DNA of 64,000 nucleotides from Armatimonadota bacterium (GTDB lineage: Bacteria; Armatimonadota; Fimbriimonadia; Fimbriimonadales; Fimbriimonadaceae). This document shows, in pieces, positions 9,830 through 56,855 of the stretch. Location: positions 58,287 through 122,286 of the forward strand of contig JANYCU010000024.1 in NCBI GenBank assembly GCA_025360125.1. Direction: 5' to 3'. Numbering within the stretch: position 1 is the first letter of the stretch; the number at the start of each line of letters is the position of its first letter. The notes beneath the pieces were generated by a model, which worked only from the letters and a program-made list of their open reading frames with translations, was not told the DNA's origin and did no database searches. Made by a program: the position numbers and the translations under genes.

Positions 9830-10462
9830 ATGAAAAAGCAAACGGCGTTCGTCTTGTTGTTGCTAAGTTCCTTAGGACTTGCGCAAGACCAAAAGCCACC
9901 CCTCCAAGTCCCCACGTGAACTGGCTGACCCGGTGAAGGGGGCTTCCTCAGTTCGGGGGAGTTAAATTATAAGTGGACCCTTAGTGGTCGTTTTGTCGAT
10001 GTCGATGTGCCAAGGGCGAAGTGGCGGACGACGGTTACTCACCGTTTTACGCCTCGTTTGCAGGCAGGATTCGAATGGAACCCGAACGCCCAAGAAGTTG
10101 GATTTATTGGCAACTGGATTGCGACTCCAGAGTCTGAAAAAACGCCGATGGTCAATTTCGGTACCAGCAGTGATCGCATCGGTACACCCGCTGGACCGCA
10201 CGCCTATTACGTCACTTTCGCCAAAAGTATTCCCAGCGTAAAACTGGGCCCCTATGTCTCGCTCAATTACTCCGAGTTCGACCATGGATTTAACTTTCCG
10301 TTCGGGGCAAACTATCAGATTTCGCCGGGTCTGACCACAATGTTCATGAACGATGGACGAAAATCCCACCTTCTCTTGACGTATTCTAAGGATAATTGGA
10401 GTATCACACCCATGCTGATTTGGATGAAGCATCCAGGGATCAGCATCAGCTATGGATTCTAA
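9830..10462 (+). CDS. Candidate selenoprotein: exported beta-barrel-like protein with UxxU (two in-frame TGA)
   Basis: From an ATG with AGGAG 6 nt upstream, the frame reads a clear signal peptide (MKKQTAFVLLLLSSLGLA-QD). It then meets TGA at 9917 and 9926 (codons 30 and 33), and stays open without another stop to TAA at 10460. If TGA is selenocysteine, the product is 210 residues with U-T-G-U near the mature N terminus. The rest alternates polar and aromatic residues like outer-membrane beta-strands and ends in Phe (SISYGF). It aligns with the product at 11854: shared TYS-x-(D/E)-x-W and K-x-P near the C terminus, and TGA at an equivalent place. The stop is 3 nt before the next gene. Alternatives are a pseudogene, or separate use of the 10007 start. 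Confidence 0.6.
9932..9949 (+). promoter_or_regulatory. Possible SECIS-like hairpin of the first barrel gene
   Basis: GGTGAAG pairs with CTTCCTC (six of seven positions, one of them G-T) around a GGGG loop. The loop begins 19 nt after the first TGA and 10 nt after the second. Bacterial SECIS loops usually lie 16-37 nt past the TGA with a G in the first two loop positions, so this is compatible with the first TGA only. It is weaker than the hairpin at 11961. Confidence 0.3.
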
Positions 10463-10465
10463 ACA

Positions 10466-11116
10466 ATGAATATCGCTCTCGCACTTTTCGTCATTACTGC
10501 CTTTTCGCCTATCCAGGATAAGCCAATCGCGATTTCTAAAAAAGATCTGCCCAAAGAGGCTGAATGTTCAGTCTGTATCGCCAATGGCTCGCCGATGGGA
10601 ATGGAAAAACCTGCCGCCGGGGCAATGTACAAAGGCAAACCTTACTATTTCTGCAACCCAAAAGAGGTCGGGGAATTCATGAAGAATCCGGAAATGTACA
10701 TTCCTCTGGAATTGCCAATGGCCCTGCCGGAATTCAACTTGAAGGATACAAACGGAAAAGTTTGGAATGCCGATGCCTTCAAAGGCAAGCTAGTGATGCT
10801 GGACTACTGGGCAACGTGGTGTAAACCATGTCTTGTACTAAAACCCAAAATTGACAAAATCCTTGAAGCTCATAAAGCTGAGGGGTTTGAAGTTCTGTCC
10901 GTAAGCATCGATGAGAAGCAAGCCACTCTCGACAAGTTCTTGGCGAAGGCAAAGTGGGATAACCCAGTGGCTCTCGACACAAACAAGACATGGGCAAATC
11001 TGCACATCGTTTCGATTCCCGCCTTGTTTTTGGTGAAGGATGGAAGAATTGTAGCCATATTCCGAGGAAACGCAGACCCTAAAGCAATCGAGGCAGCGGT
11101 TAAGGCAAATAAGTAA
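10466..11116 (+). CDS. Exported YHS-domain/TlpA-like thioredoxin fusion protein
   Basis: 216 residues with a short signal peptide. At about residues 32-75 is a YHS-type metal-binding domain (AECSVC ... YKGKPYYFCNPKEVGEFMKNPEMY). At about 85-215 is a TlpA/AhpC-TSA thioredoxin fold with the catalytic pair WATWCKPC and the cis-Pro segment SIPALFLVKDG. It should act outside the cytoplasm as a thiol-disulfide reductase linked to metal binding. It begins 3 nt after the UxxU barrel gene, so the two are translationally coupled. An electron-donor role toward the UxxU/CxxU proteins is an inference from that position. Confidence 0.85.
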   Translation: MNIALALFVITAFSPIQDKPIAISKKDLPKEAECSVCIANGSPMGMEKPAAGAMYKGKPYYFCNPKEVGEFMKNPEMYIPLELPMALPEFNLKDTNGKVWNADAFKGKLVMLDYWATWCKPCLVLKPKIDKILEAHKAEGFEVLSVSIDEKQATLDKFLAKAKWDNPVALDTNKTWANLHIVSIPALFLVKDGRIVAIFRGNADPKAIEAAVKANK

Positions 11117-11141
11117 GGAACTCCTTTTCCCAAAAGTACTG

Positions 11142-11147
11142 TATAAC
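11142..11147 (+). promoter_or_regulatory. -10-like box, leaderless type, of the cysteine-rich gene
   Basis: TATAAC ends exactly 6 nt before the ATG at 11154, and no Shine-Dalgarno is present. This suggests a second promoter inside the thiol/metal locus. Confidence 0.4.
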
Positions 11148-11153
11148 GTAGTT

Positions 11154-11597
11154 ATGAAGGAACGAACATTCAGGTTTCCGCAAGTAATGCGGCTACTGAC
11201 GGTGGTCGTTTTCATGGTTTGGTCAGTATTACCTGCGGTATGCGCCACGATGTGTGTATCGCGAGTTTGTTGCAAAAGTGCGTCTGATCTTGTCGGTTCT
11301 CCAAAGTCATCGTGCTCCATGTGCGAGCATTGCAAGCCCGGCCTCAACCGAGAACTGACAAGTTCGAAGCAAGGCAATGTTTTTTGTTGTAAATGGATTG
11401 CTAGTAGAGTTGTCCCTCTGGCGCAAGGTGACCATGCTGCGTTTTGCTTTGATTCATTGGCCGTTCTACCTTCCGAGTTTCCGAGATTTACAGCTGAAGC
11501 TGTCTTCAGCGCTGGTTCTATTCCAGGTTATTCGGGGCTGGCACCACCACGGCCGCCTGCCTTTCTTCCCGCTGACCGCGGACCTCCAATAGCTTGA
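11154..11597 (+). CDS. Cysteine-rich exported protein
   Basis: 147 residues; an internal ATG at codon 12 is also possible. A hydrophobic segment at about residues 12-30 looks like a signal peptide or anchor. It is followed by clustered cysteines (CATMCVSRVCCKSAS ... SSCSMCEHCKPG ... VFCCKW). The C-terminal third is Pro-rich. No known domain was recognised. Given the YHS-thioredoxin gene upstream and the CCG-repeat protein downstream, metal (for example copper or mercury) binding outside the membrane is a reasonable but unproven guess. Confidence 0.6.
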   Translation: MKERTFRFPQVMRLLTVVVFMVWSVLPAVCATMCVSRVCCKSASDLVGSPKSSCSMCEHCKPGLNRELTSSKQGNVFCCKWIASRVVPLAQGDHAAFCFDSLAVLPSEFPRFTAEAVFSAGSIPGYSGLAPPRPPAFLPADRGPPIA

Positions 11598-11646
11598 TTC
11601 GACCCATTTCGTCGTATCACTTTAAACCTAAATCTATTGGAAAACA

Positions 11647-11850
11647 ATGATCAATAAACTAATCATCACGGCGCTAGCCGTATTCGCCATCAGCGCGGTC
11701 TCGACCCCTGTTGTCAGTAAGGTCTCCGCCAAACCTACCAGTTGCTCTTGTTGCAACACAACTCATTGCTGCACTTCTGCCTGCTGTGGATCCGCTTGCT
11801 GCGGAACTGCATGCTGCGGATCTGGTTGCTGTGGAAAAGGGCTAAACTAA
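11647..11850 (+). CDS. Small exported CCG-repeat cysteine-rich protein
   Basis: 67 residues: a signal peptide (MINKLIITALAVFAISAVS), then a mature part built of near-repeats with paired cysteines (CSCC, HCC, ACCGS, ACCGT, GCCGK), at least fourteen Cys in about 35 residues. Such a chain can only be a metal ligand or a cross-linked structural peptide; a periplasmic metal-sequestering role is inferred. The next gene starts 3 nt after its stop, so it is in the same operon as the CxxU protein. Confidence 0.75.
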   Translation: MINKLIITALAVFAISAVSTPVVSKVSAKPTSCSCCNTTHCCTSACCGSACCGTACCGSGCCGKGLN

Positions 11851-11853
11851 GCC

Positions 11854-12471
11854 ATGACATGCCGCAAGTTGGTTCTTGCGGCTAGCATCACGATCGGGAT
11901 ATTCCCGGTCGTGACGTTAGCCCAAGAAGCTCGCTGTCCGTTGTGAGCCGCTGGAGGTTACGCATCCGGTTCGGATGCGAATAGCACATGGCAGATCAAT
12001 ACGGTCTACGCGCCGAGATCACTCACGAACACCGAAACGTTCGTCTGGTACCGTGCGCATCCACGGCTACGCCTTGGCGTCGCCGAACTCAGCAAACAAG
12101 GTGCTTTTCGGTTTCTTGCCAGCGGAACGTTGGCGGTTGAGACCGAACATTCACCCTCGGTTAATGTGAGCGTCGGAGTTCAGGGAATCGGAACCGGAAA
12201 TCCCGGCTACTCTTCCACGCTTGAAAAGAATTTCAAGTTGGGTGAAAACACCCTGAACGTCTATGTCGGGCTCGGCTTCCGAAGCAACGAGAATCATGGG
12301 CACGGAGTTGGTGGAATTCGATATTCCCTCAAGAGCGGAATTGGACTTGGAATCCAAGAAGATGGACATCAGCACAGCCCATTTGTGACGTATAGCCACG
12401 AAAAGTGGGTGGTCGGATTGTACTATGTCGGATTCAAAAATCCGGCGTACCTCTTCGGTTACCGATTCTAG
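11854..12471 (+). CDS. Candidate selenoprotein: exported beta-barrel-like protein with CxxU (one in-frame TGA)
   Basis: The frame opens with a signal peptide (MTCRKLVLAASITIGIFPVVTLA-QEA). It reads R-C-P-L, then a single TGA at 11944 (codon 31), and remains open to TAG at 12469, giving 205 residues and a C-P-L-U motif. Downstream are glycine-rich amphipathic strands ending in Tyr-Arg-Phe, as in outer-membrane barrels. It shares TYS-x-(D/E)-x-W, K-x-P and a terminal aromatic with the 9830 product, and G-G-aromatic-x-S follows the motif in both. Without readthrough only a 30-residue stub and an ORF from 12130 lacking an export signal would be made. The gene is coupled to the CCG-repeat gene. 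Confidence 0.65.
11961..11979 (+). promoter_or_regulatory. SECIS-like hairpin after the in-frame TGA
   Basis: CGCATCCG pairs perfectly with CGGATGCG (8 bp) around the loop GTT. The loop starts 22 nt after the TGA at 11944-11946 and its first base is G. Both agree with the published bacterial SECIS description (loop 16-37 nt from TGA, G in the first two loop bases, loop of 3-14 nt). It lies inside the coding sequence, as bacterial SECIS elements do. Confidence 0.5.
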
Positions 12472-54930: not shown

Positions 54931-55542
54931 CTAATCGCTGCCCACGGGCTGAATCACCCGCTCGACCTTCAAGAACGCATCCACGACTTCCGGATTCCAC
55001 TCGACCCCCGCGCTTCCCTCAATCTCCTCCAACGCGATGTCTCGCGTCGTCGGACTCTTCCACGCCGCTCCGTTCATCATCACGTCAAAAGCCTCGCACA
55101 TTCCAATGATCTGTGCCGCGGTCGGAATCTCCTCTCCCTTCAAGCCGTCCGGATACCCCGCACCGTTCCACCGCTCGTGGTGGGACCGGATGCCCGGAAT
55201 CGTCGGTACCAAGAAATCGTACGACTCAACCAACTTAACCGAGTACTCTGCGTGCCGTCGCAACACATCAAGCTCAACCTCGGTCAGTTGTCCAACCTTG
55301 CTCAATAAACTCCCATCCAGGCGAGTCTTGCCCACATCGTGCAACAAAGCCGAATAGCGCAGGCGAAGCAATTCTTCCTCGCCCAGCCCCAGCTCCGCGC
55401 CGGTTGCGACCGCGTAAACTGCCACCCGCTCAGCATGCATGCGCTCTCCCGGGGCGTTCAAATCCAAAGCTTCCAGCAACGCACGCAACGTCTCATTGCG
55501 CGATTTTCGGGTCTCGTTATCTATTTCCATTTCTCCCAACAT
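54931..55542 (-). CDS. HD-GYP domain protein (probable c-di-GMP phosphodiesterase)
   Basis: 203 residues with the whole HD-GYP core: ALLHDVGK (metal-binding HD), RRHAEYSVKLVE, IRSHHERWNGAGYPDGLKGEEIP (HHE and GYP) and the C-terminal VEWNPEVVDAF. It lacks a sensor domain. Hydrolysis of cyclic di-GMP is expected, which would oppose the GGDEF enzyme at 5043. The ATG lies inside the selA 3' end (22-bp overlap) with AGGAG just upstream, so it is co-transcribed with selA. Confidence 0.85.
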   Translation of the reverse strand: MLGEMEIDNETRKSRNETLRALLEALDLNAPGERMHAERVAVYAVATGAELGLGEEELLRLRYSALLHDVGKTRLDGSLLSKVGQLTEVELDVLRRHAEYSVKLVESYDFLVPTIPGIRSHHERWNGAGYPDGLKGEEIPTAAQIIGMCEAFDVMMNGAAWKSPTTRDIALEEIEGSAGVEWNPEVVDAFLKVERVIQPVGSD

Positions 55543-56855
55543 TCTCCTAATTGAGTCTTAAAATATTTTGACGTAGTATCGACTCCGCCTGGTCGCCAGG
55601 AGTGATAAATGGTCTCCTCGCATCGAGGATCCAGCCATACCGCGTCATTTTGGATTCTTCCAATAATTTTGTGATTTCTCAACTCTTTTAGAAGCCGATC
55701 TGGTCTTGTGGACCTCAAGACAACCGCATACGACGCAATTCCTTTGCCGGAACCAGAGCCGGATCCCAATTCACAAATGGAAGGTTCAACCGATGCTCCA
55801 TCGGGTGCAATCGCTTCGCACCAAGTTCGAATCGTTTCAGGAAGTATCGACAAGATGCGGTGCAGGGTAATACCAGAAAGCTGCCGAGAGGCGTAACACC
55901 GCAAGACGCTTTCAAGGGTCAGGATGCCGACCTTGTCAATTCGTACTACTCGGGCAATGGGGTGTTTTGTAAGTTTCCGAATCAAATCTTTGCGACCAAC
56001 AATAATTCCGCACTGTGGACCGCCCAACAACTTGTCCCCACTCGCGATCGAAATGTCGGCACCGGCTGCGACACTCGCGGGTAGGGTTTCGATGCCGTGA
56101 ATTCCGTACTGGGCAAAGTCGATCATTGCACCATTTCCTTGGTCGTTGATGAGTAAGATCCCGTTGTCTCGAGCGACACCTTTTAGGTCGTTCAGGCTGG
56201 GAAAATCCGTAAACCCCGTTATCTCATAGTTTGAAGGATGGCATCGAAGCAACGCCGCTGTACGGGTAGTAATCGATTCAGAGAAATCATTCACATAAGT
56301 CCTGTTTGTCGCTCCGACATCCACCAGTCGGCATCCGCTCGATTTGATGATTTCCGGCATCCGAAATGAGCCGCCGATTTCGACACTTTCTCCACGGCTT
56401 AGCAGTACTTCCTTGCCTTTGCAAAGGGCACTTAATGTTAGGAATACTCCGGCAGCCGCGTTGTTCACCACCAAAGCATCTTCGGCTCCGGTTAGCTGGC
56501 ACAGTAATTCGCGGACATGATCTTGCCTGTCTCCTCGTTTGCCAGTTTCAAGATCAAACTCTAAGTTGGTGTATGCCTCGCCAATAATTGGCGGCTCTAT
56601 TGGAGCACGACCAAGGCCAGTATGAAGAATTACTCCTGAAAAATTAAATACTTTTTGAAGGGAAAGCCTGGATAATTGTTCTGCAAATGCCACTGCAAGT
56701 TCTTGGGCGTTGGTGACCTTACCCTTTTCCAAATTTGTTCGAGCAGTAGAAATTGCCTTTTGCGACGCCACGGTCCGGATCCTTTCCGGATATCCCGATA
56801 GTTCCGACACCGACGCCAGTTCGGTCACGCTCGGCAACGATCGGTAATCTGGCAT
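55521..56855 (-). CDS. selA: L-seryl-tRNA(Sec) selenium transferase
   Basis: 444 residues, family length. SelA converts Ser-tRNA(Sec) to Sec-tRNA(Sec) with PLP and selenophosphate. Recognised from NFSGVILHTGLGRAPI, LCQLTGAEDALVVNNAAAGVFL, RGESVEIGGSFRMPEII, CHPSNYEITGF and SIASGDKLLGGPQCGIIVG, which holds the PLP Lys. The gene looks intact, so the organism should insert selenocysteine. selB, selC and selD are not in this window. TAAAAT (56867-56862) ends 6 nt before the ATG. Confidence 0.95.
   Translation of the reverse strand: MPDYRSLPSVTELASVSELSGYPERIRTVASQKAISTARTNLEKGKVTNAQELAVAFAEQLSRLSLQKVFNFSGVILHTGLGRAPIEPPIIGEAYTNLEFDLETGKRGDRQDHVRELLCQLTGAEDALVVNNAAAGVFLTLSALCKGKEVLLSRGESVEIGGSFRMPEIIKSSGCRLVDVGATNRTYVNDFSESITTRTAALLRCHPSNYEITGFTDFPSLNDLKGVARDNGILLINDQGNGAMIDFAQYGIHGIETLPASVAAGADISIASGDKLLGGPQCGIIVGRKDLIRKLTKHPIARVVRIDKVGILTLESVLRCYASRQLSGITLHRILSILPETIRTWCEAIAPDGASVEPSICELGSGSGSGKGIASYAVVLRSTRPDRLLKELRNHKIIGRIQNDAVWLDPRCEETIYHSWRPGGVDTTSKYFKTQLGECWEKWK

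What the first reader, a model, noticed from the sequence alone, without database searches (positions are those of the whole stretch)
9830..12471. Paired candidate selenoproteins: exported barrel-like proteins with UxxU and CxxU from in-frame TGA
Seen: two paralogous frames (9830-10462 and 11854-12471) are each open from signal peptide to a terminal Phe except for TGA codons: TGA-act-ggc-TGA in one, tgt-ccg-ttg-TGA in the other. The TGAs sit shortly after the signal peptide at matching places, giving U-T-G-U and C-P-L-U, redox-type spacing. Downstream the proteins share TYS-x-(D/E)-x-W, K-x-P and an aromatic C terminus. No other stop type or frameshift interrupts either frame. Known: bacteria with SelA decode TGA as Sec before a SECIS hairpin. 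The window has intact selA. Inference: a new selenoprotein family, probably metal- or thiol-related. Two independent pseudogenes with stops at the same motif position would be an odd coincidence.
Basis: partly seen in the sequence, partly recalled or inferred. Interest (0 to 1): 0.95.

Follow-up and report, generated by a model that had tools for sequence, protein, structure and literature searches.

The report
Undescribed paired-selenocysteine outer-membrane barrel proteins
Two neighbouring genes here belong to an apparently undescribed bacterial protein family in which in-frame TGA stop codons very likely encode the rare amino acid selenocysteine, in a close residue pair at the start of a predicted outer-membrane barrel where it would act as a redox or metal-binding switch.

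Summary
Both frames are open except for TGA and are paralogues. The genome has selA, selB, selD and tRNA-Sec; selD also carries an in-frame TGA. Relatives occur in 43 and 51 of 113 genomes of the order and, weak hits included, 87 of 291 of the phylum. The two motif columns are invariant as Cys or TGA. TGA forms track tRNA-Sec: among 88 genomes at least 90% complete, 39 of 39 with a TGA form have it (Fisher p 1e-14). Sec genes carry a covarying SECIS-like hairpin, mostly at one distance; the 12 Cys genes examined do not. AlphaFold models are 12-stranded outer-membrane barrels. The UxGU type is followed by an exported TlpA-like thioredoxin in 17 of 36 loci; a third copy in this genome lies in a copper-type resistance island. 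No Pfam or NCBIfam model, nor a 119-family 2026 inventory, covers it. Redox/metal switching is inferred; selenium incorporation is untested.

The parts
9830..10462 (+). Selenoprotein gene A (UxGU type): signal peptide, UTGU motif, predicted 12-stranded outer-membrane barrel, C-terminal Phe
9917..9919 (+). first Sec TGA codon of gene A
   Evidence: column is Cys/Sec in 40 of 40 rows of A1
9926..9928 (+). second Sec TGA codon of gene A
   Evidence: column is Cys/Sec in 40 of 40 rows of A1
9941..9963 (+). SECIS-like hairpin of gene A, 9 bp, apical loop AGUUC, loop 21 nt after the second TGA
   Evidence: 48-nt fold -16.3 kcal/mol; alone not significant against synonymous shuffles, p 0.06; family covariation
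10466..11116 (+). Exported TlpA/ResA-like thioredoxin with N-terminal CxxC and weak YHS-like segment, 3 nt after gene A, probably the redox partner
   Evidence: Pfam, NCBIfam; adjacency in 17 of 36 A-type loci
11154..11597 (+). Exported Cys-rich 147-aa protein of unknown family; a homologue precedes the third selenoprotein copy
11647..11850 (+). 67-aa exported peptide with many CC pairs (metallothionein-like by eye), no family
11854..12471 (+). Selenoprotein gene B (CPxU type): signal peptide, CPLU motif, predicted 12-stranded outer-membrane barrel, C-terminal Phe
11944..11946 (+). Sec TGA codon of gene B
   Evidence: column is Cys/Sec in 35 of 35 rows of A2
11961..11979 (+). SECIS-like hairpin of gene B, loop GGUUC (outer pair may close), 21 nt after the TGA
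   Evidence: 48-nt fold -16.7 kcal/mol; p 0.02 against synonymous shuffles; family covariation
55521..56855 (-). selA, selenocysteine synthase (distant part of the Sec machinery)
   Evidence: TIGR00474, 412 bits

Best explanation
Both genes very likely make selenoproteins: each in-frame TGA would be read as selenocysteine by the SelB/tRNA-Sec machinery whose genes this genome carries, with the conserved hairpin after the TGA as the predicted SECIS signal. The products are predicted to be exported and to fold into 12-stranded outer-membrane barrels; the U/C-x-x-U pair lies in the short segment between signal peptide and strand 1, which would be on the periplasmic or lumenal side. In 73 of 79 relatives no other Cys follows the motif, so the pair is likely the only thiol/selenol centre of the mature protein. 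Inferred mechanism: the pair cycles between diselenide or selenenylsulfide and the reduced form, with the exported TlpA-like thioredoxin encoded 3 nt downstream of gene A as its likely reductant, and in the reduced form binds or reduces a thiophilic metal such as Cu(I); this would gate, or load, the barrel in the envelope's defence against copper or oxidants. Tiers: TGA decoded as Sec about 0.97; outer-membrane barrel about 0.9; thioredoxin-coupled redox pair about 0.6; copper link about 0.4; the confidence given is for the whole.
Against: Selenium has not been shown in any of these proteins. Four genomes with TGA forms show no clear tRNA-Sec (G005, G039, G050, G059); all four are 70-88% complete. 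Four all-Cys genes of the 79 sit in tRNA-Sec genomes, and further stop-free matches in tRNA-Sec genomes (G062, G088, G090, G091, G092) were not put among the 79. Individually only 16 of 67 hairpins beat synonymous shuffles at p < 0.05, gene A's own at p 0.06. The Cys-form hairpin control is small (12), mixes subfamilies and was not realigned. The motif segment has low model confidence (block means 65-67 in A, 53-65 in B), so its place in the lumen is a guess. TlpA is adjacent in only 4 of 43 B-type loci (one of them a weak hit) and absent from 19 of 36 A-type loci. The metal context was read from chosen loci without a background rate; most neighbours scanned carry no metal domain, and the window locus itself is flanked by trigger factor and a peptidase.
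Confidence: 0.6

Rival explanations
1. Envelope thiol oxidoreductase without any transport or metal role: the barrel is only an anchor and the Sec pair reduces peroxides or disulfides, fed by the TlpA-like partner.
For: TlpA-like neighbour in 17 of 36 A-type loci; UxxU/CxxU redox spacing; the 2026 review holds that most uncharacterised selenoproteins likely serve redox functions (PMC13188914, section 7).
Against: A 12-strand barrel close in fold to channels (FapF, KdgM, NanC) is a costly anchor; metal genes around several copies are unexplained.
Confidence: 0.25
2. Pure metal-binding site: the reduced U/C-x-x-U pair, like the CxxC of HMA domains, captures Cu(I), Hg(II) or similar metals for export, without redox cycling.
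For: Third own copy in an island with HMA, DUF326, DUF305, DUF2933, P-type ATPase and multicopper oxidase; MerR-thioredoxin fusions upstream in L106 and L086; Cys-rich neighbours.
Against: The recurrent partner is a thioredoxin, not a metal chaperone; further metal ligands in the barrel were not tested for; most neighbours scanned show no metal domain.
Confidence: 0.12
3. The TGAs are true stops; the genes are pseudogenes or start downstream of the TGA.
For: The 120 homologues listed of 516 in the protein database are 125-173 aa, shorter than the 205-210 aa read-through frames; I did not check where each starts.
Against: TGA position, motif and flanks conserved across a phylum with Cys exchange, SECIS-like hairpin and a tRNA-Sec link; a start after the TGA would remove the signal peptide.
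Confidence: 0.02
4. TGA is reassigned genome-wide to another amino acid.
For: In-frame TGA in several genes.
Against: 29 of 79 family genes, as delimited by script, end at TGA; selA, selB, selD and tRNA-Sec are present; TGA interchanges with Cys at the motif.
Confidence: 0.01

Closest known systems
TonB-dependent receptor, FCYXU-type selenoprotein (NF049945) and GSU2204 MtrB/PioB-family selenoprotein (NF041027)
   Same: Outer-membrane beta-barrel proteins predicted to carry Sec (listed in PMC13188914 Table 1, read)
   Different: Those are other families: the window proteins hit no NCBIfam model at E <= 1, are predicted 12-stranded ~205 aa barrels and carry the Sec pair before strand 1. That the known ones have 22 and 26 strands is recalled.
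FapF (5o65), KdgM (4fqe), NanC (2wjr) and COG4313 channel (4rl8)
   Different: 6-16% identity in these alignments, no sequence match in PDB; that none of them has a Sec/Cys pair is recalled
UxxU double selenoproteins: NF041115 metal-binding protein, Prx-like UxxU forms, FmdB-family UxxU
   Same: Same UxxU spacing with two Sec (PMC13188914 Table 1)
   Different: Different domains by name; no Pfam or NCBIfam match of the window proteins
TlpA/ResA-type exported thioredoxins, incl. the selenoprotein form NF041054 WAxxUGC
   Same: The neighbour 10466-11116 matches ResA-like models
   Different: The neighbour has WCKPC with no Sec, and scores below the NCBIfam curated cut-offs

Membership tests
Bacterial selenoproteins (SelB-dependent) | in-frame TGA at a conserved place, interchanging with Cys | tested here: met
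   67 Sec-containing and 12 all-Cys forms of 79 genes, both columns Cys/Sec throughout A1 and A2
Bacterial selenoproteins (SelB-dependent) | selA, selB, selC, selD in the genome | tested here: met
Bacterial selenoproteins (SelB-dependent) | bSECIS: hairpin with G in the first two loop positions, 16-37 nt after TGA, stem 4-16 bp, MFE <= -7.5 (model from PMC13188914 section 5) | tested here: met
   window hairpins: loops AGUUC and GGUUC, spacing 21 nt, -16.3 and -16.7 kcal/mol for the 48-nt stretches; checked by eye, bSECISearch was not run; family covariation
Bacterial selenoproteins (SelB-dependent) | selenium shown in the protein | not testable with these tools
   needs 75Se label or mass spectrometry
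The 119 listed prokaryotic selenoprotein families | match to one of the listed family models | tested here: not met
   no Pfam or NCBIfam model at E <= 1 for either protein; Table 1 read; entries with only cd/PTHR ids were not scanned
12-stranded outer-membrane barrels | 12 strands closing a barrel | tested here: met
   prediction only: 12 strands in both models (plus one 3-residue strand in A), best matches outer-membrane barrels
12-stranded outer-membrane barrels | signal peptide and C-terminal aromatic residue | tested here: met
   C-terminal F/W/Y in 70 of 79; signal peptide judged by eye and by the N-terminal helix in the models, no signal-peptide program was run
FapF amyloid secretion channel | sequence homology to FapF | tested here: inconclusive
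   no PDB sequence match at E <= 1; only fold similarity

The most novel reading that the evidence does not exclude
A diselenide-gated outer-membrane channel: Armatimonadota use a pair of selenocysteines as the redox gate or metal latch of a small 12-stranded barrel, reset by a dedicated exported thioredoxin, to control passage of copper or another thiophilic metal across the outer membrane.
Probability: 0.2. Interest if true: 0.92.

Novelty: new variant of a known kind. Interest (0 to 1): 0.8.

Why it matters
It adds a phylum-wide selenoprotein family whose database entries are cut short, and it puts a double-Sec motif on an outer-membrane barrel rather than on a thioredoxin fold. The natural series UxxU, CxxU, UxxC, CxxC, with CxxC forms in genomes without tRNA-Sec, is a ready-made system for asking what selenium buys a protein at the cell surface and how Sec is lost.

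Tried and rejected
Chance or pseudogene: rejected on conservation, Cys exchange, hairpin and tRNA-Sec link. Genome-wide recoding of TGA: rejected because 29 of 79 family genes end at TGA. Known families: Pfam, NCBIfam and PDB sequence searches gave nothing for the two proteins. The search for related loci in genome contigs with P0002 confirmed no relative (that tool may leave out the window's own kin). Profile search of the protein database with A2 gave 98 proteins among the 7994 candidates scored (a capped set), none with a functional name; those that name an organism are mostly Fimbriimonadaceae or Armatimonadota, one is labelled Kamptonema/Geitlerinema and was not followed. No conserved neighbour other than the TlpA-like gene stood out in the 40 larger loci compared. 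Neighbours of Cys forms (acetyltransferase, 3-keto-disaccharide hydrolase, transglycosylase, subtilase, halogenase-like) gave no common theme.

Literature: no paper on this family came up in searches of the held open library. Of PMC13188914 I read the abstract, section 5, parts 1 and 2 of section 7 (all of Table 1) and passages; of PMC12013277, PMC9727886 and PMC4807772 only passages; the other listed papers were seen as listings only. Subscription journals and preprints were not searched.

Rows dropped: 102 hits were reduced to 80 by identical C-termini; L113 was dropped as a duplicate of L072. Matches that were not fetched, and loci fetched later, are not among the 79. The TGA-form list of 49 genomes was made by me from the rows; G058, with only a 39-position TGA fragment, is counted as having none. 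The tRNA-Sec line was drawn by me in the gap between 66.1 and 53.1 bits; Rfam's own cut-off of 47 would of 113 genomes positive, and I did not check each 47-53-bit hit.
Full report
What was checked. The two frames are exactly as described: gene A at 9830-10462 with TGA at 9917 and 9926 (UTGU), gene B at 11854-12471 with TGA at 11944 (CPLU). They are paralogues, E 9e-14, motif on motif.

Does this organism decode TGA as Sec? Its genes say so. The assembly (4.13 Mb, 58 contigs, 98.6% complete) has selB (343.5 bits, cut-off 242), a tRNA-Sec (68 bits, gathering 47; ARAGORN calls SeC with anticodon tca), selD (358 bits) with an in-frame TGA and selA in the window (412 bits). After the CAGU TGA of selD a GACGGA-GGTTC-TCCGTC palindrome follows, with the same GGTTC as in the family studied here.

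Family. Searches that read through stops found gene B relatives in 43 of 113 genomes of the order, gene A relatives in 51 of 113, and the profile A1 found matches in 87 of 291 genomes of the phylum, some of them weak, with clear two-TGA forms outside the order such as G120, G143, G150, G174. From fetched loci I extracted 80 rows and kept 79. Motif states: UTGU 28, USGU 1, UVGU 1, CAGU 1, UAGC 3, CAGC 2; CPLU 25, UPLU 4, UPIU 2, UPMU 1, UPVU 1; CPLC 2, CPIC 6, CPVC 2. Thus both positions exchange between Sec and Cys. In the alignments the two columns are Cys/Sec throughout (A1, 40 rows; A2, 35 rows). A maximum-likelihood tree needs three changes between Sec-containing and all-Cys forms.

Link to the Sec machinery. 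True tRNA-Sec genes stand apart by score: 58 of 113 genomes have a hit of at least 66 bits, the next best hit is 53 bits; a 34-bit hit in this genome is the tRNA-Ser at window 52868. 45 of 49 genomes with a TGA form have it; the other four are 70-88% complete. Among the 88 genomes at least 90% complete the table is 39/0/12/37 (TGA form with/without tRNA-Sec; no TGA form with/without), p 1.2e-14. At gene level, 8 of the 12 all-Cys genes are in genomes without tRNA-Sec; the other four are in tRNA-Sec genomes (G074, G085, G086, G087), and more stop-free matches in such genomes were not fetched or not counted (G062, G088, G090, G091, G092). The best natural contrast is one genus: G055 has tRNA-Sec, TGA and GCCAGTTCGGC; G053 and G054 have no hit at 66 bits, have TGT and lack the palindrome.

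SECIS. In both subfamilies a hairpin follows the last TGA with the loop mostly at +22 to +26. Consensus stems of 7 (A, 31 genes) and 6 pairs (B, 33 genes) are kept in 87-100% and 82-97% of sequences, with compensatory changes (for example pair 18/30 in B: A-U, G-C, C-G, U-A, G-U); the 12 Cys forms, a small and mixed set, give no consensus structure. The loop core [A/C/G]-G-T at +22..+24 is in 62 of 67 Sec forms and 0 of 12 Cys forms; among the five exceptions L085-L088 appear, by eye, to have the hairpin at another distance. Against synonymous shuffles the Sec forms are more stable on average (mean z -1.31, n 67) than the Cys forms (-0.42, n 12), p 0.0013, but only 16 of 67 are individually below 0.05; the three own genes have p 0.06 (A), 0.02 (B) and 0.02 (third copy). 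The window hairpins meet the published bSECIS constraints (PMC13188914 section 5).

Neighbours. Gene A is followed after 3 nt by an exported ResA/TlpA-like thioredoxin with an N-terminal CxxC segment and a YHS-like match below the curated cut-off. Such a gene directly follows the selenoprotein (or its Cys form) in 17 of 36 A-type and 4 of 43 B-type loci, one of the four a weak hit. Between the thioredoxin and gene B lie two exported Cys-rich proteins without a family. The genome has a third copy (CPLU, contig C56, L089) again preceded by a homologue of the Cys-rich protein and followed by a TlpA-like gene, then DUF305, HMA and DUF2933 genes, a P-type ATPase with a CPD motif, a DUF326 Cys-rich protein, YtkA and a multicopper oxidase: a copper-type island. 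Other hints: MerR-thioredoxin fusions directly upstream in L086 and L106, a YtkA-like protein overlapping in L098, a YHS/TRASH protein upstream in L084, a divergent YHS-HMBD P-type ATPase in L114. Most other neighbours scanned show no metal domain, and no background rate was computed, so the copper link is a lead.

Novelty. Neither protein hits Pfam or NCBIfam (June 2026) at E <= 1 or any PDB sequence. The 119-family inventory of May 2026 does not list such a family. Eight searches of the held library brought up no report. The 120 homologues listed of 516 are 125-173 aa, as expected if gene callers cut them at the TGA; that may be why the family was missed.

Shown: TGA positions, conservation, Cys exchange, machinery genes, tRNA-Sec link, hairpin covariation, neighbours. 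Predicted: barrel fold, export, Sec incorporation. Inferred: redox cycling with the TlpA-like partner, metal gating or binding.

Noticed in passing
L015, match 1501-2409 (G000 contig C56): selD of this genome carries an in-frame TGA in a CAGU-AAKLG context, so SelD is itself a probable selenoprotein; a GGTTC palindrome follows.
   Followed up: partly
window 55521-56855; L001; L008; L015: selA, selB, tRNA-Sec and selD lie on four different contigs (C44, C10, C26, C56), so they do not form one compact operon.
   Followed up: no
L089:3881-4543 and L159: A third paralogue (CPLU) in this genome sits in a copper-type resistance island (P-type ATPase, multicopper oxidase, DUF326, HMA, DUF305, DUF2933).
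   Followed up: partly
L106:4606-5262 (-), L086:4534-5187 (-): MerR regulator fused to a Thioredoxin_3 domain directly upstream of UPIU-type genes; a possible redox or metal sensor.
   Followed up: no
window 11647-11850: 67-aa exported peptide with many CC pairs, metallothionein-like by eye, no family.
   Followed up: no
window 10466-11116 against L046 and others: The N-terminal CSVCIANG of the TlpA-like protein resembles the CPICVANG motif of the all-Cys barrels; shared metal site or coincidence.
   Followed up: no
order-level genomes: tRNA-Sec at 66 bits or more is in 58 of 113 genomes of the order and varies within single genera, pointing to repeated loss.
   Followed up: no
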